Positions 21,618 to 49,089 of a stretch of 64,000 nucleotides of DNA are shown piece by piece. The translations under genes were made by a program, and so were the position numbers. Source of the DNA: Linderina pennispora (lineage: Eukaryota > Kickxellomycota > Kickxellomycetes > Kickxellales > Kickxellaceae); the NCBI RefSeq assembly GCF_002104995.1, contig NW_024468262.1:186001-250000 (forward strand). Reading direction: 5' to 3'. The notes under the pieces were generated by a model that was given only the letters and a program-made list of their open reading frames with translations, searched no databases and was not told where the DNA came from. Numbering within the stretch: the stretch's first letter is position 1; every line of letters begins with the position of its first letter.

Positions 21618-23279
21618 ATGGCTCTCTCAGGACCGCTATCATTTGTCCCGGACGACATCCTCTTTGAGATATTCAAGTGGGTGTGTCCGACTATGCTTCC
21701 TGAAGCAGAGAACTGCTTTGGCCTCACAGCAGTTCTGTTGCTCGCCCACGTATGCCGCAGATGGCGACATGTTATCAGCAGCCCATTCGTCAAGTATGTC
21801 TGCATCGAGCGCGTGCTTATTGGGGACTGCACGAAGGATGGGAGACATGGGTATGCATGGCGGTCAAATATTGAGATGCTCATCGGGATGGGCAAGACAG
21901 AGGATGTCAGTCACCTTGTCATCAAGCTGGATGACGGGTGTATGTGCAAACCCCAGATGACAGAGATCCTGAATATGTTTCACGGCTACCACTTCAGATG
22001 GGCAAACATCCGTTCCCTTGTATTCGCTGGTGCTGGCCTCATGTCATTCGGGAATAATCCCTACTACAACCCGCAGTTGGATCCCGAGGCACAAATGGCA
22101 TTCTTTCAGTTCATCGCGCTTTTCCCGAATATCGGTTCCATGGTGCATACAAAGAACATGTTTGATAATGTGCCACTTGGGCTATCCACCCACAACACTA
22201 TACTATATCCACTTTACTGTTGGCTCTTTCACCACTACCGTAAGCAGCTCACATCTGTCCAGGGGCTGTATCCGCTGCCGCCTAGAGCCTTATCCAGCGT
22301 CGAGTATGAGACAACAGATTTGGAACTGAACTCGAAGTACCTGGGCTACTTTGCTGACAGTCCAGTGTTTGAAGCGTCGGTCATTCGCAAGATGACGGTC
22401 TATGAGATCATCGAGGGTATGAACTGGGGCTGGTTTAAATCCAGAAACAGCAACGATATTGTCTTTTCTAGCATGGAGCAGCTCAGTCTACGTTGTGTGC
22501 CACAAACTCATCTTAGCGCCAAGCTCGATCCGACCGGCGGGTTTGCCTTGCGTTTTCCGAAGTTGCTCTCATTAACGGTTGGGGATTCAGTTCCTGTCTT
22601 TGGCGACATTTACAGTCTCTTTCATGAATCTCCTATCGAGTTTCTTGCAATGGGCGAGGACCTGAGCGACCTTCAGTATATCGATGCGCGGATTGTCTCG
22701 AGGATTAAGGCATTCGTGCTGGTCGGGCAACAATTCTCGGACACACCCGTTTTTATTCAGCGCGGAGCTATCACTAGGTTTTACAAAGCGTTATGCCGGG
22801 TACAGGAGTTGTGTCTACTCTCAAATCCGTACCCATTGACAGATGTCGACCAGCTTATTTGCCTTAAAAACTTGCAGATCGACCTGAGCGTGGACGAGTT
22901 TCCCTATTTGCACGGAGCCATTCAGCAACTGCCAAGACTCGGGGTGTTGGATATCGTGTTCAAGAAACACTGGAGCGCCCGCAAGTACCCTTACACACTT
23001 TTGCCAGGTGAAAACACGCCTGCAATCGAGAACGCAGTACCTAGCACATACAGGCATGGAACCAATATTATCGATGCCTCTGACCTGCCCCCGATCAGCA
23101 CCTCGCTCTACTATGTCAGCATCGCACACAGCGGTCCAGAGATGTTCCATCGTGCCTGTATTCTCATTCGCAGCTTGCCCAACCTGACGAAGGTTGCTGT
23201 CCACGAGAGTAATGCGCTTGACATTCTCGAATTCAATCGCATAAGGGGCAGAGGTGTTAAAACCGAGGTGTATGGCTAG
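21618..23279 (+). CDS. F-box protein with degenerate leucine-rich repeats, intact
   Basis: Uninterrupted 553-residue frame. The N-terminus is an F-box (LSFVPDDILFEIFKWVCP..LLLAHVCRRWRHVISSPFVKYV): Pro-Asp-Asp/Glu-Ile-Leu start and CRRW end, residues ~6-60. The rest is irregular leucine-rich sequence with recurring LxxLxIDLS-type strands (CLKNLQIDLSVDEF, LPRLGVLDIVFKK, SLPNLTKVAVHES). F-box proteins recruit substrates to SCF ubiquitin ligases through Skp1; the target is unknown. It is the only large F-box gene here without a frame break and so a useful reference for the broken ones at 32901, 36994 and 42322. Confidence 0.75.
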   Translation: MALSGPLSFVPDDILFEIFKWVCPTMLPEAENCFGLTAVLLLAHVCRRWRHVISSPFVKYVCIERVLIGDCTKDGRHGYAWRSNIEMLIGMGKTEDVSHLVIKLDDGCMCKPQMTEILNMFHGYHFRWANIRSLVFAGAGLMSFGNNPYYNPQLDPEAQMAFFQFIALFPNIGSMVHTKNMFDNVPLGLSTHNTILYPLYCWLFHHYRKQLTSVQGLYPLPPRALSSVEYETTDLELNSKYLGYFADSPVFEASVIRKMTVYEIIEGMNWGWFKSRNSNDIVFSSMEQLSLRCVPQTHLSAKLDPTGGFALRFPKLLSLTVGDSVPVFGDIYSLFHESPIEFLAMGEDLSDLQYIDARIVSRIKAFVLVGQQFSDTPVFIQRGAITRFYKALCRVQELCLLSNPYPLTDVDQLICLKNLQIDLSVDEFPYLHGAIQQLPRLGVLDIVFKKHWSARKYPYTLLPGENTPAIENAVPSTYRHGTNIIDASDLPPISTSLYYVSIAHSGPEMFHRACILIRSLPNLTKVAVHESNALDILEFNRIRGRGVKTEVYG

Positions 23280-29078: not shown

Positions 29079-30304
29079 ATGGAAGAACTGGACAAATTCC
29101 GCGAGCAGTGGCTCGAAGAAGTGCGCACACGGCATGAGCCAGCCACGCAGACCGCATCCGAACTCCTCTCAATGTCCGGGGTTGGCTCAATGGACGCAAA
29201 TACGCAGACAGCGCTCTCGCACTACCTCCAGGCGACCGCCTACGAGCACGAGGGACGGCTCGGCGAGGCTCTGGGCAGCTACCGGAAGGCATTCCGTCAC
29301 TGCGCAACAATCGACTCGATCTACCGGCAGATCACGCAGGGCCGCGACGGCGCCCACGCGCAAGCGCAGCTGGCCAAGGCCGAACAGAATATTGCCGACA
29401 AGAGGCGGCAGGAGAGCGGCGGGTTCTTGTTCCGCCACGAGGCTGGCGCGCGCGAAGTCGACGACACTCGCATTGATGTGATGGCGGAATTGGTCAGCGG
29501 GCTAAAGAAAATGGAGCTGCAGTGCGTGCCAGGAAACGCCAACCGGCCGGTGCTGGTGGACCGGCTGCCGGACGACCTTTTAGTCCATGTGCTGAAGATG
29601 GCGGGGGCGGTGGATGTGCAGATTGTCGGGCGGTTTGCTGCGGCCTGCAAGCGGTTTGCAGTGGTATCACGTGATGCTCGCCTCTGGAAGTTTATGAACT
29701 GCGCAGCCCAGCGCCAGCCTACCGGCGAGCGCTTCCAAGCAGCCTGCAGCAGCGTCAGCGTGCCTGCAGAGGAGCCCGTGGATACATATAGCCTATACAG
29801 GGAGGCACAGGCATATGATGGGTGGCTGGACATGTTCTTGCGGCGGGCGCGTGTGCGGTTCGATGGCATATACATCTCAACATGTCATTACCTGCGGCCG
29901 TCATCGGCAGAGAACACGTGGACGACGCCGGTAATGCTGGTGACATATTACCGGTACCTTCGGTTTTTCCGCGACGGCACCTGCCTCAAGCTCCTGTCAA
30001 CCACAGAGCCGGCCAAGATTGTACGCAGCATCTTCTGGGCCACCCGCGAAAGACGCGTGCAGCGCGGGGTGTGGCGGCTGGACGGACGCGATGTGGTGGC
30101 ATATACACAGGACAAGGAGCGCGATGGCCTGACCTTCTGCCTGGAGCTGGAGGTGCGCAGCACGCGGGACAGCCAAGAACAACAAGTTGCTTGTGGCAGC
30201 GCTACTCACACACCGACGATGTACGTGGCAGCTCCAATGAATATTCGCTGCGACAGTTCAAGCCGTTTTATTTCTCAAAGGTGGCATCCTATCTGCCTGA
30301 ATAA
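29079..30304 (+). CDS. F-box protein of the FBXO9/Hrt3/Pof7 family
   Basis: SCF substrate receptor. The N-terminus has a helical TPR/MIT-like stretch (ALSHYLQATAYEHEGRLGEA..YRKAFRHC). The F-box follows at ~residues 170-215 (VLVDRLPDDLLVHVLKMAG..AACKRFAVVSRDARLWK). The family-specific core is evident: MFLRRARVRFDGIYISTCHY, VMLVTYYRYLRFFRDGTCLK, LLSTTEPAKIV. One shift near 30170; the frame after it continues LLWQRYSHTDDVRGSSNEYS and FKPFYFSKVASYLPE to TAA at 30302-30304. About 408 aa. It ends only 10 bp from the convergent PCK1 gene, so the 3' ends probably overlap. Confidence 0.85.
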
Positions 30305-30314
30305 ATATGGCCTA

Positions 30315-31087
30315 TTAGACTGCGGGTGCGGCTGCTGTGATCTCGGGTGTCGCCTGGTCGGCGTACTGTGTGAAGTTGTCGCTGAATAGCCCCGCAAGCT
30401 TTCCAATGGTCTCATGGAACTCTGCTGGCGAGCCCTGCCAGGCCTGCAGCGGATCCAGAATCTCACTGGGCACGCCCGTGACGGACCGCGGGATCTGCAG
30501 GTTGAATACTGGGTAGTTGGCATATTCGGCCTGCTCAAGTTCGCCCGAGTGGATAGCGTCGATGATCTGGCGCGAGTGTTTGAGCGAGATGCGCTTGCCG
30601 ACGCCATAGGCACCGCCGGCCCAGCCGGTGTTGACTAGCCACACGCTGGCATTATGCTTCTGCAGCTTCTCGGCCAGCATCCGCGCGTACTTGACCGGGT
30701 GCCACACCAGGAACGGCTGCCCGAAGCACGCAGAGAACGTCGCCACCGGCGCCTTGACGCCCTCCTCGGTGCCGGCAATCTTGGCTGTGTAGCCCGAGAT
30801 GAAGTGGTACATGGCCTGCGCAGGCGTCAGCTTGGCCACCGGCGGCAGCACACCGAACGCATCGCACGTCAGCAATACAATGTTCTTCGGGTGCCCGCCC
30901 ACACACGGCACTTTGGCACTGTCCATGTGCTCGATCGGGTACGCGCAGCGCGTGTTCTCGGTGATTGTCTTGTCGGTGTAGTCCACTAGTCGTGTTTCAG
31001 GGGTTGATCTTGACGTTCTCCTAGCACCGAGCCAAACCGGATCGCTCGGAAGATCTCCGGCTCCTTCTCAGCCGACAGATCGATGCA

Positions 31088-31120
<33 letters not shown>

Positions 31121-31958
31121 ACCGCTCTCGGTCCACACGTGTTCGTCATCACCGATCAGCAGCCGCTGCGGGTCCGCCGACAGCGTCGTCTTGCCGGTAC
31201 CCGACAGGCCAAAGAACAGCGACACGTCGCCCGATCGCCCCTCATTGCATGACGCATGCAGTGACAGCGCATTGGCCTTGGGCATCAGATAGTGCATCAC
31301 CGTGAACACGCCCTTCTTCATCTCGCCCGCGTACTCGGTGCCCAGAATCACCATCTGCTTGTGCTTGAAGCTAATCGACACGCTGGTGCTGCTTGTCATG
31401 CCCTCAGTGAATGTGCTGGCCGGGAACTGGCCCGCGTTGATAATGGTGAAATCGGGCTCGCCAAAGTTCTCCAGCTCCTCGGCTGTCGGCCGGATCAGCA
31501 TGTTGTTCATGAACAGCGCATGGTAGGCGCGCGCACACACCACGCGCACCTTGATGCGGTACTTGGGGTCCCACCCAGGCGAAGCCGTCGAACACGTACA
31601 GGCGCTCACGCGTGTTGAGGTAGTCGACAGCGCGCTCGTAGTTGATGGCGAACGACTCCTCTGACAGCTTCTTGTTGACCGGGCCCCACCACACGTCATC
31701 GACCGTGGATGCCTCCTTGACAACACGCTTGTCCTTGGGCGACCGGCCTGTCTTGTTGCCCGATCGCGCCACCAAGGCGCCAACAGAAGACACGCATGTG
31801 CCGGGCTCATACCGTACTGCGTCTTCATACAGACTCGCCATCGCTGCGTTGCGGCGGACCGTGCGCGGAATGAGTCCTGACAGGAACGGCGCATGTGTGT
31901 GCAGACTGCGTAGCGCCCGTCCGCCAGAGCTGCGTGCGAGTGATAAAATCTTGAGCAT
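30315..31958 (-). CDS. PCK1: Phosphoenolpyruvate carboxykinase (ATP)
   Basis: Converts oxaloacetate and ATP to PEP in gluconeogenesis. Signatures: [14 protein letters not shown], the kinase-1a P-loop [21 protein letters not shown] (metal site), [29 protein letters not shown] and [15 protein letters not shown]. This is the ATP-type enzyme of yeasts and plants. Shifts near 31580 and 31010. Length ~547 aa, as usual for the family. The first ~36 residues ([27 protein letters not shown]) contain six Arg and no acidic residue before the conserved ASLYEDAV start, so they look like a mitochondrial presequence; the usual fungal enzyme is cytosolic. An internal Met ([10 protein letters not shown]) could give a short cytosolic form. 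Confidence 0.93.
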
Positions 31959-32823
31959 AGGTCGTTATGATGGTTCGTTAATAAAGTGTCTAAAATAATA
32001 TTTTCTAGTGCGGAGGCGGAGAAAAACCAAACAAAAAACATCCTGTGATCGAACAAGCCATCAGGCCTGCCGATCGGCCCGGTGTTGTCGTCATATGCCC
32101 CTGGATTAATCGCATTTATCAAACTCCTTTCTGTACAACTGCTTCTTGATCACGTGTAGCCACTAACAATGTCCTGCAAAAGATGTTTGATTTGCCTAAC
32201 AATGCAATTCAGGGCAACCTGACAGAGCTTCTAGGGCCATCCGCACATCAGCAGCAGCAATGCACTATACTGCCTGCCTGCCCATTTCCGAATCCTTCTG
32301 CAGCCTGTAAACATGGCAGAGCTATGGACCCATGAGTCTTGCGGTCATGGTACATTGGAAGGATAGACAGCCAGCTGTGCTTTTGAACAAGAGAGCACTG
32401 CCGCAGTACATTGACTCTGGACCACTTGACTGCATGGGCTGCATGTGCAACCGCCGATGCTCGCTGGGAGAGCACCAGTACCTCTCTTACTCTAAAACCC
32501 GACAAAAAAGGAAGGGACTGACCCCTTTTAATTTTGCTGATCTATCGCTCAACCACGAACACGGCGGACACCTGTCCGCGTTCGCAGTCCTTTCCACTCT
32601 GCAAAGCCTCACATGGCTCGGCCCCATGCTGCATGCGTGCATGACCGCATAAAAACTTGGCTCCCACGGCACTGTTTCCTCGATGGCCATAGGGTTAGAC
32701 GTTACGTCTCCACCATGTTTTGTACATTTTTGCTCCACTCCGATACATGTCTCGCCGTGGAGGACCCATGTCGCTGCCATGTCTGGGAGACGAGAGTGCC
32801 CTCGTCCAGCGCTCCAGAAAGAG

Positions 32824-38573: not shown

Positions 38574-40187
38574 TTACGGCCTCGTCGACTTGACCACCGC
38601 GCGGCCCTTGAACAGCCCCAGCAGCAGCGGACCTGTAGCTGCCAGCAGCCGCCATAGCGGCACAAGCGTGAAACAGCCGTCCGAGCCACGACGTGCGCAA
38701 GCCAGTAGCTCTTCGGGTACATCATCGCGGGGCCAACTACCGCTTTCCATGGAGTTCTCGTCGCCTGCAAACGGGGCCAGGCGCAAGGTGTCGACGCTAG
38801 GCCGGCGGGAACCACAGCGGGCGCTTCATCACCGACCGCTTGTGCGAGAACGTCTCGAACGAATACCTGCCCATGTAGTTGCCGACGCCCGACGGGCCGA
38901 CACCGCCGAACGGGAAGTTGTGCGCTGCCAGATGGAACATGGCATCGTTGGCTATGGCGCCGCCCGAGCGCGTGTGCTGAAGCACATACTCGCTGGTTTT
39001 GTCGCTGGCAAACACGTACAGTGCCAGCGGCTGGTCGCGTGAGTTGACGATCTGGAGTGCCTCATCCAGCGTATCGTATGTGATTATCGGCAGTATCGGC
39101 CCAAACAGCTCGTCGCGCATCAGTGAGTCTGACGCAGTGACGTTGTCGACGAGTGTTGGAGGAATGTACCGGTCGGCCTTGTCTGCCACGTCATCCACAA
39201 TGGGCACCACCGTGCCGCTGGATGCTGCCAGCGCGTCCGTCAGCCGCTGCCAGTGCCGCTGGTTGATGATGCGTCCGTATTCGGCCGACTTCTGCGGCGT
39301 GCGCGTGTACGCCTTGTGCACAACCTCTGTAAGCAGCTCCACCAGCTTGTCCTTGATCGAGCGCTGCACCAGCAGATAATCCAGCCCCACGCACGCCTGC
39401 CCGGCATTCATGAGCTTTGCCCACACCAGCCGCATTGCCGTCGGGCCCAAATCCGCCACATCATTATGAACAATTGCCGGCGACTTGCCGCCCAACTCCA
39501 GCGTCACACCTGCCAGCTGCTCGGCGGCAGCCTTGGCCACAATCTTGCCCACTGCGCCATTGCCCGTGTAGAAAAAGTGGTCGAACTTTTGCTTCAGCAG
39601 CTCGGTGGTCTCAGGCGACGCCGCCCTGCACCACCTGCAGGACACGTGCATCCAGGCTCGTCCGAAGCACGTACTCCATGGCCATGGCCGAGTACGGCGC
39701 CACCTCCGACTGGCTTCACCACCACAGTATTGCCCGCTGCCAGTGCACCGATAAGCGGCAGGAGCGTCAGCCGCACCGGGAAGTTCCATGGGCTGATAAT
39801 TACCACGCAGCCCAGCGGCTCCTTGCGCACCTCCATCGAGCTCGTCAGGAACCCTGTCTGGTCGCTTGCCAGCCGATTATGCTCTGGCCTAACCCATGTG
39901 TCGATGTTGGCTAGTGCCTGCCCGATCTCGAATTCCACAGCCTGGATATCGTAGAGCAGTGCTTCTTCCTTGCACCGATGTAGGTCAAGATACAGTGCTT
40001 GGGCGAGCAGGTCGGAGTGCTGGCGCACACCCTCCAGCAGCGCCTGCAGCTGCTGCTTGCGGTAGCTGACCGGCCGCATTATGTCCTCGGCGAATGCACC
40101 GCGCAGGTCTGCCACTATAGTGCTGATTTTCGACACTGGCGTGAAAGCCAGCTCCTGCTTTTCAAGGTCAATCGTGCTTGTGGCCAT
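38574..40187 (-). CDS. HFD1: Fatty aldehyde dehydrogenase (ALDH3 family)
   Basis: Oxidises long-chain aldehydes, for example hexadecenal from sphingolipid breakdown. Motifs: [33 protein letters not shown] (GxxxxG cofactor loop), [13 protein letters not shown] (catalytic Glu), [16 protein letters not shown] (catalytic Cys), [11 protein letters not shown] (EIFGP-like), and the C-terminal [20 protein letters not shown] typical of ALDH3. After KRPLWFPPA a shift near 38795 opens a further ~70 residues ending in a hydrophobic segment ([19 protein letters not shown]) with basic flanks, the expected C-terminal membrane anchor of HFD1/ALDH3A2. Further shifts near 39620-39720. Start [15 protein letters not shown]. 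About 535 aa. Confidence 0.9.
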
Positions 40188-45270: not shown

Positions 45271-45375
45271 TGCAACGATGTGCTTGTTGCATCTTTACTA
45301 GAATTGCTCTGCTCGCGATGCGAGCTCGGCTGCTAGTCAGCATGGGTTGACATGCCGATAAGAGCATCACGGCAA
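45271..45375 (-). ncRNA. Candidate Fanzor guide (omega) RNA scaffold
   Basis: Directly downstream of the Fanzor coding region on its strand, where TnpB and Fanzor guide RNAs usually lie. Three inverted repeats can be seen: TGCAAC/GTTGCA (45271-45291), GCTCGC-GAT-GCGAGC (45311-45325, perfect six-base stem) and GCCG/CGGC (around 45354-45373). The guide would be encoded towards lower coordinates, past the element end, which I cannot place. This is inference from position and hairpins only. Confidence 0.3.
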
Positions 45376-45449
45376 ACCGGTCATTTGAACGTGTTGGATG
45401 GCTGTTGGTGCAATGGCAGTCATGGACATCTCCCATCTTGGTGGCCTGC

Positions 45450-47919
45450 TCAGCGCAGGCGCTTCAGCGCTGGCTCGCTGCTACTGGCAACAGAATCGCC
45501 TGCTGCTGCACGCCTCTTGCGCGACCTCTTTGTTGCCAGGGTGGTGCCAGAAGCATTGGCAACAATGGCCGTAAAGCGATGGAACCGTTCAGGAATACTG
45601 CCTGAATCACAGAGTGACTAGAAAATGAGCCTGAAGTTTAGAACTGCTGCGAGGTCGCGGTTCAAGAGCTGAGACGAATAGGCTCGCCTGTATTGTGCCA
45701 TGGCCCGCTTACATGACTCGCTTGTACAGCGGAGAAGGCCATGGCACTTCACAGTTGGGTTCTTCGATCTCTGGTAGGGCCGCGGATTGGGAACATGCCG
45801 GAATGTCTGCAGTGACTTTTCGCAGCAGAACGGGCACATCGACGATGTCCGGAATTCGTCGATCAGATAGACTTCAAAGCCATGATGCTTGAACTTGTCG
45901 CGCCATCCCTTGCCACGAATCGGCGCATGGTGTCGGGCCATCGGCGCACTCCAATTGCCCATGACCAGCACTGGATCTGGACCGAACTTGCTCCGGAGTT
46001 TCGCGGCAAGCCTGTGGTCTGCACGGGCCTGGTTCATGAATGAATCAAGGCGCAGCTTGCGGTGAAGCGGGCACACCTTGGGACTGGTACTGACACCTGG
46101 ATGGGCCTTCCAGCGCCTTTGGTGCTGCTTGTTTGACTCAGTGGGCTGCTGCTCTGGTAACCTTCGCGCTGTCATCGTGCTGGCATAAAACGGTGCTAGG
46201 ACACACCGCACAGATGCACGGGCAGCAACGTAGGCACGGAATTTTGCTGGGCTAAGGGTCCGGCAGCAGTGCTTGGAAAGCTCTGCCTCTGCTCTGCGGA
46301 CAGCATCTTCTGGGACTTGATCCTTTGTAGCCCGACGAATCCTGTCATAGTGACGCAGCTTGAGCTCCTTATTGCGCTGCTGCCGTGTGTAGCGGTAGAG
46401 CATTCTCTCACCCTCTTTCCCATTGCTGCTATTTTCGTGCATCATGTATAGCAAATCGCCCCGACCTGGATCGATGAATACACAGCGGCCTTTCAGATTC
46501 TGCAGCTCTGGCTGTGGGATCTGGTGGATATAGCGACAGTCAGCTATAGTATTGCCTCCCACAGCATTGCCTCCTGCACCATCAGCCTTAGGTACCTTGT
46601 CTTGTAACAGAATGCATATCGTTACATCATCTGTTGTCGCCATTCCGTGGAATTTTCTGTCACCATGCACCTTAAATGGCTTTGATGTTAGATCTGCGAC
46701 CCAGCCCCACACATCCCACACAGGTTGTGTGATCCCTTGGACCGGGTCGTGTGCACAGACTGGGGGTGCTGGTGCATATGCATTGTTAAGTGCTGCAACA
46801 GTGTCTGCTGCTGCCGCCGATGCAGCAGCAAGCGAATCAGCCGCTACTGCTGCAGTTGCTGCAGTGGCCTCTGTTTCATCTGATGGCATCTTCGCTGCTT
46901 CGCGTGCAGCCTTCTTGGCCAATTTTTCGCCCTTTTCTGCTGCTTTCCTTGCCTCTGTTGCTGCCCTCTTTGCTGCGTTGATCTTGGTAACCTCCTCACG
47001 TGTTTTCGAAACAAACACCTGCTTGATTATTTGCTTGTCTAAGCGCACATGGCCTGGGATCCATGATGTCCGCAGAGGCAAGCATTGAGGGGAGACTTGC
47101 CAAGCTGCTCATTCTCGATAAGCTGGCATAGGCGAATGTATGCACGCAGATGCTTAAGTGGATTTACCTTGGCACCATAGTATCGGCTGTCTTTGGCGAA
47201 TCTGTACTTGGCATCATAGGCACTAAGGACTGGTGCCAGCTTGTTGTAGATTGCAAGCATCGGTGGGGTGAGCACACTGAGATCAGGGTGCCTAGAGGCA
47301 ACTGCCTGGCGGAGCTTCTGTGCAGGTGTATAAATACACACTTGGCATGCATTATTGAACTCAGCCTTGGACACATTGCCCATTGTACTGTGCAGTGTGT
47401 TTTTGCGGTTGCGAATATCAATCAATTTGGCCAGAATCCGCTGTAGGCAAGTGCCATAGTGCAACACAATGTTGTTCTTGTATGCTGTCATCAGCTCGGT
47501 ATCCACGTATGTCGCTACTTGATTCATTTCGCGTACACCATGTAGCTCGATATCGCCATTATGCAATAGATAATCATAAATATGGTATCTAACTACATCA
47601 CCGAAATCTGCGCTTAACAGTTCTGACTTGTCCTTCCGGTTGACGAAATCCTCGGCAGATATGACAGTCTTCGCCTTCAGGTTGCGATAAATGAATAAAT
47701 AAATAAAACAAAAAAACCCTTTTTCACAAATGTTGCTGGGTCAAAGGCATCATCGTAAGCTAGCTGATGGAGTAGTATCCATCGTGCAAGCATGTATGTA
47801 TGCTCTTTGATGATATTGACGCTGTGTACAAATTGCTCTAGGCGGGGCAACATAGAATCACGGAAGCCAATACCACCAAGTGATGTCTTTATGGCAGTAG
47901 TGCTGCGGGTAATGTTCAT
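45450..47919 (-). CDS. Fanzor 1 RNA-guided DNA endonuclease (eukaryotic TnpB homologue)
   Basis: Begins MNITRSTTAIKTSLGGIGFR at 47919, a typical Fanzor N-terminus. A shift or small intron near 47680-47700 leads into FVNRKDKSELLSADFGDVV and the helical YVDTELMTAYKNNIVLHYG. The Fanzor 1 motif LPLRTSWIPGHVRLDKQII follows after a one-base shift near 47075, then a Lys/Ala-rich insert (~46790-47000) and KFHGMATTDDVTICILL. RuvC-I is CVFIDPGRGDLLYMM (Asp codon 46470-46472). RuvC-II is VYLIDEFRTSSMC (Glu 45855-45857). RuvC-III is LLNRDLAAVLN (Asp 45654-45656). The zinc ribbon is CPFC plus CTSESC. The frame stops at an in-frame TAG (45618-45620), but 55 sensible codons continue (SGSIPERFHRFTAIV, TKRSRKRRAAAGDS, a likely nuclear signal) to TGA at 45450. 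About 815 aa if read through. No transposase gene is seen beside it. Confidence 0.88.
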
Positions 47920-49089
47920 TTGAGAAATTCAATAGGCAAAGTAAGAAGAGAAATGATGCTGTTCAGTTTTGCTTTATTGCGTATGCATAGCATTAAGAAC
48001 TTTTTATTAAAAATGATCTGGCTTGCATGGTTCTTGGGGCCCTTAGCACTGATACAGTCCCTTGAATCAGTCTATACAGACTGTGTCTATTGTGGCCCAA
48101 ATACTACCGCTCACACATGTTCATAAGACAAATTAGTTTATAAAATAAATCCACAAATATTGCATGACCGCTAGAAGAGTTATATGGCCTTGTTCAATGT
48201 GCTCATAAACAAATATCCTAAGAGTGTTGCGCAGCCGGTGATGACCACCATGATGATGCCATGGAAGTTATCAGGCCGACCGACAATGAGAGCAGCTCTT
48301 GTGCTGAACCAATGGAGATATCTAGTGGAGACCTGTGACCACTACAATAACAACTCGTCACCCTGGTTTCACCGATGAGGTCAGATGCCGCACAAGATCA
48401 AAAAGGAGTTTATAGAGTAAGTCACCCAAACTCGTGTTGAAGCTTAAAAGTTTTATTTTATTTTTTTTTAACCAATTATATAATTTCTAGCGGACGGTCG
48501 GACACTTTTTAGACTATAAAATCTTGTATATAGGTAAAGATAAAGAAAAGATATTGCCACACAGTGTCGGAAATAGGAACGGTATCGCCCGACAATATAA
48601 ACCTTATCAGTAATGCTGTGGTTAAAGACAAATCCTTTTAAACTGCTGGAAGCTAGACCGAAAAGTGCCAATAGTCACAACTCTTGCTCCCTAGTAGCAA
48701 TATCAGGTGGTGTCTGCTTTCAACCTAATACATGTATGCCTATCGCAATTTGAAGCTTGCTAGGATACCTACAGCACTAAAATTAGCGTGTAATTGTAAG
48801 ACACGCCTCCAAACACGGTCCAAAGCTACGTTTATGTGAACACCACACAGTACATCTCAGTGTCGGAAGCAAACAAAAACTGAAAATCAGCATGATTACT
48901 TTTAATTAACGAGCGACTTCTAGTGCAGGAAATCACCAAAAATATGTCACCTATGCATGTAGATCAGCCGAACAAAGCTGCGGTACCGCAGCTGACAAAT
49001 ATCTTCAACATGTCCAATGTTGGTGACAAGCAAGGACCACCTCTTCTCCTCATATCTTTTTTCAATCACTTTCCATATTGCTCCTGGAC
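47920..49089. other. 1.2 kb between Fanzor and the next gene
   Basis: AT-rich, with T-runs near 48460 and A/T-rich patches near 48880-48960. It may include the upstream end of the Fanzor element, but no terminal inverted repeat could be recognised. Confidence 0.45.

What the first reader, a model, noticed from the sequence alone, without database searches (positions are those of the whole stretch)
45450..47919. A Fanzor RNA-guided endonuclease locus
All hallmarks of Fanzor type 1 are readable: N-terminal TTAIKTSLGG block, LPLRTSWIPGHV motif, RuvC-I (FIDPGRGD), RuvC-II-like Glu in DEFRTSSMC, CxxC plus Cx4C zinc ribbon, and RuvC-III (NRDLAAVLN). Fanzors are eukaryotic OMEGA nucleases related to TnpB and Cas12. 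The catalytic Asp-Glu-Asp set is complete, so activity is possible. This is the strongest candidate for a new system here.
Basis: partly seen in the sequence, partly recalled or inferred. Interest (0 to 1): 0.92.

Follow-up and report, generated by a model that had tools for sequence, protein, structure and literature searches.

The report
Broken Fanzor gene in a Helitron
This is a decayed copy of a known kind of RNA-guided DNA-cutting gene, Fanzor1, that rides on a rolling-circle jumping element present in many copies in this genome, and sites with and without the element make it possible to ask what the cutter does for it.

Summary
The named motifs are on the minus strand, and the catalytic half matches solved Fanzor1 proteins (PpFz1 E 3e-60, SpuFz1 3e-31), with Asp-Glu-Asp and both cysteine pairs kept. 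This copy is broken: two frame changes and one early stop. The genome holds at least 88 related places, 10 in stop-free frames of 842-894 aa. Fanzor1 is a known family, so this is not a new system. The gene lies in a 3,243-bp canonical Helitron (TC at 48540, hairpin, CTAG at 45298). Of 115 such 3' ends genome-wide, 113 are followed by TA. Four sites without the element read TATA, TATC, TATA, TATA just before the guide-like sequence, in line with the published PpFz1 TAM, ATN. A Helraiser-like RepHel Helitron shares the 5' terminus; its 8 detected 3' ends all abut another Helitron's 5' end, and one apparently allelic pair shows the Fanzor Helitron with and without RepHel. Fanzor1 in Helitrons was described in 2013 (Helitron2, an alga). 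I file this as a new variant of a known kind; homing is plausible but untested.

The parts
45298..48540 (-). Non-autonomous Helitron carrying the Fanzor1 gene, from 5'-TC (48540) to CTAG-3' (45298)
   Evidence: Sharp ends shared with sister copies by blastn, ends laid side by side, each end once in the window and 0 in 100 shuffles
48512..48540 (-). 5' terminus TCTTTACCTATATA...ATAGTC, preceded by host A
   Evidence: the first 84-89 bases also occur at 6 of 7 RepHel places
47680..47919 (-). Fanzor1 N-terminal piece (ATG at 47919, TTAIKTSLGG)
47042..47740 (-). Fanzor1 middle piece in a second frame
   Evidence: the same stretch is part of one open frame in L024 and L028
45621..47108 (-). Fanzor1 C-terminal piece in a third frame, with RuvC and zinc ribbon
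   Evidence: PDB matches
46470..46472 (-). RuvC-I Asp of DPG
45855..45857 (-). Glu of DEFRTSS
45711..45836 (-). Zinc-ribbon cysteines (CPFC ... CTSESC)
45654..45656 (-). RuvC-III Asp of NRD
45618..45620 (-). Early TAG stop of this copy
45296..45355 (-). Predicted 3' part of the omegaRNA scaffold (includes the Helitron 3' hairpin)
   Evidence: Inference from PpFz1 (75-nt omegaRNA) and conservation in 20 copies; fold z -2.57 here but -0.67 in L028, so only the hairpin is firm
45311..45325 (-). Helitron 3' hairpin GCTCGC-ATC-GCGAGC
45298..45301 (-). CTAG-3' terminus
45296..45297 (-). TA after CTAG, most likely host target sequence
   Evidence: 113 of 115 ends; host has TA there in 3 of 4 sites without the element and TC in 1
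45276..45295 (-). Predicted guide of this copy (first 20 nt after TA)
   Evidence: Inference; letters read

Best explanation
A dead copy of a Fanzor1 gene inside a non-autonomous canonical Helitron. Shown: Fanzor1 identity, Helitron termini, sister copies with long open frames, and a RepHel Helitron with the same 5' terminus in the same genome. Inferred: RepHel moves the Fanzor Helitron in trans by rolling-circle transfer; an RNA from the 3' end of the element, ending in the hairpin and CTAG-TA, carries the adjacent host sequence as guide; in intact sister copies the protein would cut the same site lacking the element, beside a TATN/ATN motif, so that repair keeps or copies the element. This copy no longer encodes a whole protein but could still give guide RNA to a sister's protein.
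For: Protein: (PpFz1 E 3e-60 for the window piece, 2e-83 for L024); catalytic and zinc residues. Element: ends; 115 3' ends matching the exact pattern, reversed-pattern control 0; no inverted termini or target duplication seen by eye. Selection: pooled pN/pS 0.46 over 28 fetched loci, 0.33 in codons 1-310, 0.77 in 311-500, 0.44 after 500; the same data in a wrong frame 0.81. TAM: 4 of 4 sites without the element read TATA, TATC, TATA, TATA before the guide-like sequence; PpFz1 TAM is ATN (PMC11423790, passage).
Against: No RNA or cleavage data. The TAM rests on four sites, three apparently allelic and one paralogous repeat. The RNA fold is weak in L028 (z -0.67), and the last bases that would close it differ in some copies (by eye). 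The Pfam TNB and NCBIfam TnpB models match only below their cut-offs. AlphaFold on the window piece alone was useless (pLDDT 39.6). The host base before TC is T, not A, in 2 of 13 copies. pN/pS was measured against a majority sequence, which is crude.
Confidence: 0.82

Rival explanations
1. The Fanzor gene is a passenger: a Helitron captured it, copies spread only because the ends are good RepHel substrates, and guided cutting plays no part.
For: Many fetched copies are decayed or 5'-truncated. Some places with both ends about 2.0-2.2 kb apart have no scored Fanzor match (searches compared by place), although 310 of 398 candidates were not scored.
Against: pN/pS 0.46, lower in the N-terminal and catalytic parts than in the middle; 10 of 88 places keep stop-free frames of 842 aa or more.
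Confidence: 0.3
2. RepHel and Fanzor form one autonomous element whose inner end is skipped, rather than RepHel landing repeatedly on Fanzor Helitrons.
For: All 8 RepHel 3' ends found abut another Helitron's 5' end, 5 with the exact CTAG|TCTTTACC joint. C171 shares its host flank with C157b but its RepHel end with C157a, so copies exchange sequence and trees may mislead. Deletion of RepHel at C5 is not excluded.
Against: Near-identical RepHel ends (for example C1 and C212, 0.8% over 598 bases) sit on Fanzor copies 7.4% apart, and the 5 followers compared fall into three groups; C5 has the host flank and Fanzor variant of C157a without RepHel.
Confidence: 0.35
3. The TA after CTAG belongs to the element (end CTAGTA), so the target rule is not A^TA.
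For: 113 of 115 ends have it; the L022 site without the element has TC there.
Against: In 3 of 4 sites without the element the host itself has TA there; RepHel ends are CTAG, then T followed by C, T or A.
Confidence: 0.25

Closest known systems
PpFz1, Parasitella parasitica Fanzor1 (PDB 9cf0-9cf3, PMC11423790)
   Same: Aligns with sister copy L024 over residues 29-848 in four pieces (E 2e-83); same DPG, DEFRTSS, zinc ribbon and NRD; its ATN TAM agrees with TATN seen here
   Different: The word Helitron does not occur in that paper, so its carrier is not compared; the window copy is broken and activity here is untested
SpuFz1, Spizellomyces punctatus Fanzor1 (PDB 8gkh, PMC10432273)
   Same: Fanzor1 with a guide from the 3' flank
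   Different: More distant (E 3e-35); TAM CATA
CRe-1, 2, 3 of Chlamydomonas (PMC3627910)
   Same: Fanzor1 in non-autonomous Helitrons, often 5'-truncated with 3' ends kept
   Different: Those are Helitron2, inserted after TTTT, many with target duplications; here TC...CTAG ends and no duplication seen
Helraiser (bat Helitron, PDB 7lcc, PMC5876387)
   Same: RepHel helicase half E 3e-138; TC...hairpin...CTAG, A^T target, circles joining CTAG to TC
   Different: No Fanzor partner: that paper is not among the 4 with both words
IS607 TnpB ISXfa1 (PMC10711439)
   Same: A fixed flanking nucleotide is part of the guide-RNA scaffold, as proposed here for TA
   Different: Prokaryotic; moved by IS607 recombination

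Membership tests
Fanzor1 | Significant match to characterised Fanzor1 proteins | tested here: met
Fanzor1 | D ... [TS][TS]xx[C4 zinc finger] ... RD motif with complete D-E-D | tested here: met
   motif as worded in the abstract of PMC3627910
Fanzor1 | Carried on a eukaryotic transposon | tested here: met
Fanzor1 | omegaRNA from the 3' end with guide from the flank | tested here: inconclusive
   Conserved 3' end, fold weak in one of two copies, no RNA data
Fanzor1 | RNA-guided dsDNA cleavage with a TAM | not testable with these tools
   TAM inferred only
Fanzor1, this copy as a working gene | One open reading frame | tested here: not met
Helitron (canonical, Helitron1) | 5'-TC, 3' hairpin then CTRR | tested here: met
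Helitron (canonical, Helitron1) | Insertion between A and T without target duplication | tested here: met
   Exact at L022; 3' side A^T at L027, L018, L021, but 8 and about 7 host bases are missing on the 5' side at L027 and L018; host A in 11 of 13 copies; duplications judged by eye only
Helitron (autonomous) | RepHel encoded in the element | tested here: not met
   Only Fanzor pieces read between 45298 and 48540; none of the 7 RepHel places lies in the window
Helitron2 | 5' hairpin and asymmetric terminal inverted repeats, T-rich target | not tested
   Ends fit Helitron1; no search for such repeats was run
TnpB (prokaryotic) | Match above the NCBIfam TnpB cut-off | tested here: not met
   L024 16.4 bits against cut-off 100; window piece no match

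The most novel reading that the evidence does not exclude
An RNA-guided homing drive on a rolling-circle transposon: Fanzor made by filled sites cuts the matching empty allele beside TATN, so the empty alleles that survive are those altered in the first guide positions. In the three allelic-like pairs the empty allele mismatches the predicted guide at positions 1-2, at 1 and 4, and at 7. In addition, RepHel Helitrons live at the 5' ends of the Fanzor Helitrons, by insertion there or by recombination of a circle through the shared 5' end.
Probability: 0.2. Interest if true: 0.8.

Novelty: new variant of a known kind. Interest (0 to 1): 0.5.

Why it matters
What Fanzor does for the element that carries it is, to my knowledge, an open question. 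A genome with over a hundred element ends, sister genes with long open frames, a likely mobiliser, and filled and empty versions of the same site lets one read the motif and guide start from nature and test guided retention directly. The match between the Helitron target A^TA and a TATN-type TAM is a concrete, checkable case of a nuclease fitted to a different transposition mechanism.

Tried and rejected
LINE-like reading of the repeats at the 5' end: rejected, since the 3' ends are exact and a RepHel partner exists. Cut-and-paste transposon: rejected, no inverted termini or target duplication by eye in the aligned ends; no repeat finder was run. Mariner, Crypton or IS607 carriers: ends do not suggest them; not searched by profile. 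Element-encoded CTAGTA end: kept as a rival. Structure: AlphaFold without relatives gave pLDDT 39.6, so no fold search was made. Rfam: 0 matches in the window at gathering thresholds. Joined-flank searches: 13 sites gave 3 places without the element (40 of 43 candidates scored; the window's own site found only itself); 10 further sites gave no listed match covering both flanks by more than 17 bases (40 of 143 candidates scored); at L021 four repeat copies cross the joint by 2 bases. The mean distances among RepHel-linked copies were not used as a test, since copies exchange sequence. The first pN/pS run had the wrong frame by my mistake; it serves only as a control. Organism: not identified; Linderina was a guess from memory on genome size, a search for it with Fanzor found 0 papers, and I do not claim it. 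Paper searches: 'Fanzor' 82 papers, 30 listed; 'Fanzor' and 'Helitron' 4 papers; 'Fanzor' and 'homing' 16 papers, 12 listed; Helraiser terms 9 papers; these are listings. Read: passages and one section each of PMC3627910, PMC10432273, PMC11423790 and PMC10711439; passages of PMC5876387. No paper was read whole.

Full report
The thing itself. The C-terminal 487 residues match Parasitella PpFz1 (E 3.2e-60) and Spizellomyces SpuFz1 (3e-31) among solved structures; the Asp, Glu and Asp of RuvC and the CxxC and Cx4C pairs are in place. A sister copy with one open frame, L024, matches PpFz1 between residues 29 and 848 in four pieces (E 2e-83), SpuFz1 (3e-35) and, weakly, GtFz1 (7e-5). So Fanzor1 membership was tested, not recalled. 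The Pfam TNB model and the NCBIfam TnpB model match only below their cut-offs.

This copy is broken: two frame changes and a TAG at 45618-45620 just after RuvC-III, beyond which a basic tail is still readable. A protein search of the genome gave 131 matches, which I grouped by hand into 88 places including this one; the tool scored 88 of 398 first-look candidates, so this is a lower bound. Ten of the 88 lie in stop-free frames of 842 to 894 residues; two of these were read in full (L024, L028). Against a majority sequence, substitutions in 28 fetched loci give pooled pN/pS 0.46: 0.33 in codons 1-310, 0.77 in codons 311-500, which hold the Ala-rich linker, and 0.44 after that. The same data in a wrong frame gave 0.81. 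This suggests selection on the protein while the family spread, followed by decay of single copies.

The element. Comparing the window with the fetched loci gives sharp ends. The 5' end reads TCTTTACCTATATATAAG and is preceded by host A in 11 of 13 copies, T in 2. The 3' end is a 6-bp hairpin GCTCGC-ATC-GCGAGC, about nine bases, then CTAG. Each end is found once in the window and in none of 100 shuffles. This is the anatomy of canonical Helitrons: TC, hairpin, a terminal tetranucleotide, insertion between A and T without duplication (PMC5876387, passages). The window element is 45298-48540 and shows no RepHel. Genome-wide, 115 3' ends match the exact pattern against 0 for the reversed pattern, and 113 are followed by TA; among the 25 ends printed, 24 have TA and L015 has CA.

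The mobiliser. PF14214 finds seven RepHel places; six carry the first 84-89 bases of the Fanzor Helitron (a capped list; read). The helicase half is PIF1 (2e-78), and its nearest solved relative is Helraiser (3e-138). RepHel has its own 3' end, found 8 times with up to 2 mismatches. All 8 abut the 5' end of another Helitron: 5 as CTAG|TCTTTACC, 2 as CTAG|TACTT, 1 as CTAG|TTACC. In 7 of 8 the follower looks like a Fanzor Helitron, judged from Fanzor matches at the place (C1, C23, C157a, C212), a 464-base match (C112) or its first hundred bases (C157b, C171); at C2 it is a different element. The exact CTAG-TC joint is what Helraiser circles show, and tandem Helitrons are known from plants and bats (PMC5876387, passages).

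How the two came together is open. RepHel ends of C1, C2, C212, C157a, C157b and C171 differ by 0-2.2% over the bases compared, whereas C23 differs by about 10% over 583 bases and C112 by 16-19% over about 590, though both are much closer in the last 280-360 bases. The five Fanzor followers compared fall into three groups of a tree with many weak forks, and C1 and C212 carry Fanzor ends 7.4% apart behind RepHel ends 0.8% apart. For C157b the Fanzor used lies about 4 kb further off than expected, so its pairing with that RepHel is assumed. The C5 place has the host flank and the Fanzor variant of C157a with no RepHel between, in the 301 bases seen. This favours RepHel joining resident Fanzor Helitrons, by insertion or by recombination of a circle through the shared 5' end. 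Against it, C171 mixes the flank of C157b with the RepHel end of C157a, so copies exchange sequence, and loss of RepHel at C5 is not excluded.

Target, TAM and guide. Joined flanks of 13 insertions found three places without the element, and one repeat gave a fourth, with two further repeat copies agreeing. L022 is an exact A^T insertion; L027 and L018 lack 8 and about 7 host bases on the 5' side. If the guide starts at the third base after CTAG, the four sites read TATA, TATC, TATA, TATA just before the best-matching sequence. PpFz1, the nearest characterised relative, has TAM ATN (PMC11423790, passage). So the host A^TA that the Helitron uses could serve as TAM, and the TA could sit in the RNA scaffold, as a fixed flanking nucleotide does in IS607 TnpB (PMC10711439, section). 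The published PpFz1 omegaRNA of 75 nt points to the last 50-60 bases as scaffold; the fold beats shuffles here (z -2.57; 4 of 200 as good) but not in L028 (z -0.67; 48 of 200).

In the three allelic-like pairs the empty allele differs from the predicted guide at positions 1-2 (L027), 1 and 4 (L018) and 7 (L022), three mismatches in 25 in each. Survivors that escape cutting would look like this; so would mutation at insertion or plain divergence. Three pairs cannot decide.

What is known. Fanzor1 in Helitrons was described by Bao and Jurka in Chlamydomonas as Helitron2 elements (PMC3627910, section read). In the held library 4 papers contain both words; of the three I looked into, only that one gave element anatomy in what I read, and PMC12477157 was seen as a listing only. 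A Fanzor1 in TC...CTAG Helitrons with readable empty sites and an adjoining RepHel partner is therefore, within those limits, a new variant of a known kind.

Noticed in passing
L049-L054, L013, L024, L026 5' ends: Many 5' ends carry runs of ATCTTT of varying number before TCTTTACC; C157b and C171 share a flank but differ in the number of units.
   Followed up: partly
L045 (C2), L062 (C23): Another element with a similar 5' terminus (continuing GCGTTTTTGGATGGTTGG) lies directly behind RepHel at C2 and behind the Fanzor 3' end at C23.
   Followed up: no
23 places that begin at query residue 218-225: A group of C-terminal Fanzor matches, 17 of 23 in frames of 310-347 aa and 16 of 23 with a TGA: perhaps a separately amplified derivative.
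   Followed up: no
L029, L031, L034, L037: A repeat of about 390 bp that partly matches its own reverse complement lies beside or within Fanzor or RepHel elements.
   Followed up: no
small contigs C5, C53, C54, C57, C84, C106, C117, C154, C193, C203: They match flanks of insertions on other contigs at 90-100%, as alternate alleles would, so the assembly may hold two haplotypes.
   Followed up: partly
window 30989-32041, 38800-39789, 21618-23276, 29079-30386: Host gene pieces: ATP-type PEP carboxykinase, aldehyde dehydrogenase, and two F-box-like proteins, the first of these two below the Pfam cut-off.
   Followed up: no
G000:C68:198243-198650: A weaker PF14214 match (E 5.8e-24) inside a 1,989-aa open frame with repeats, perhaps another Helitron lineage.
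   Followed up: no
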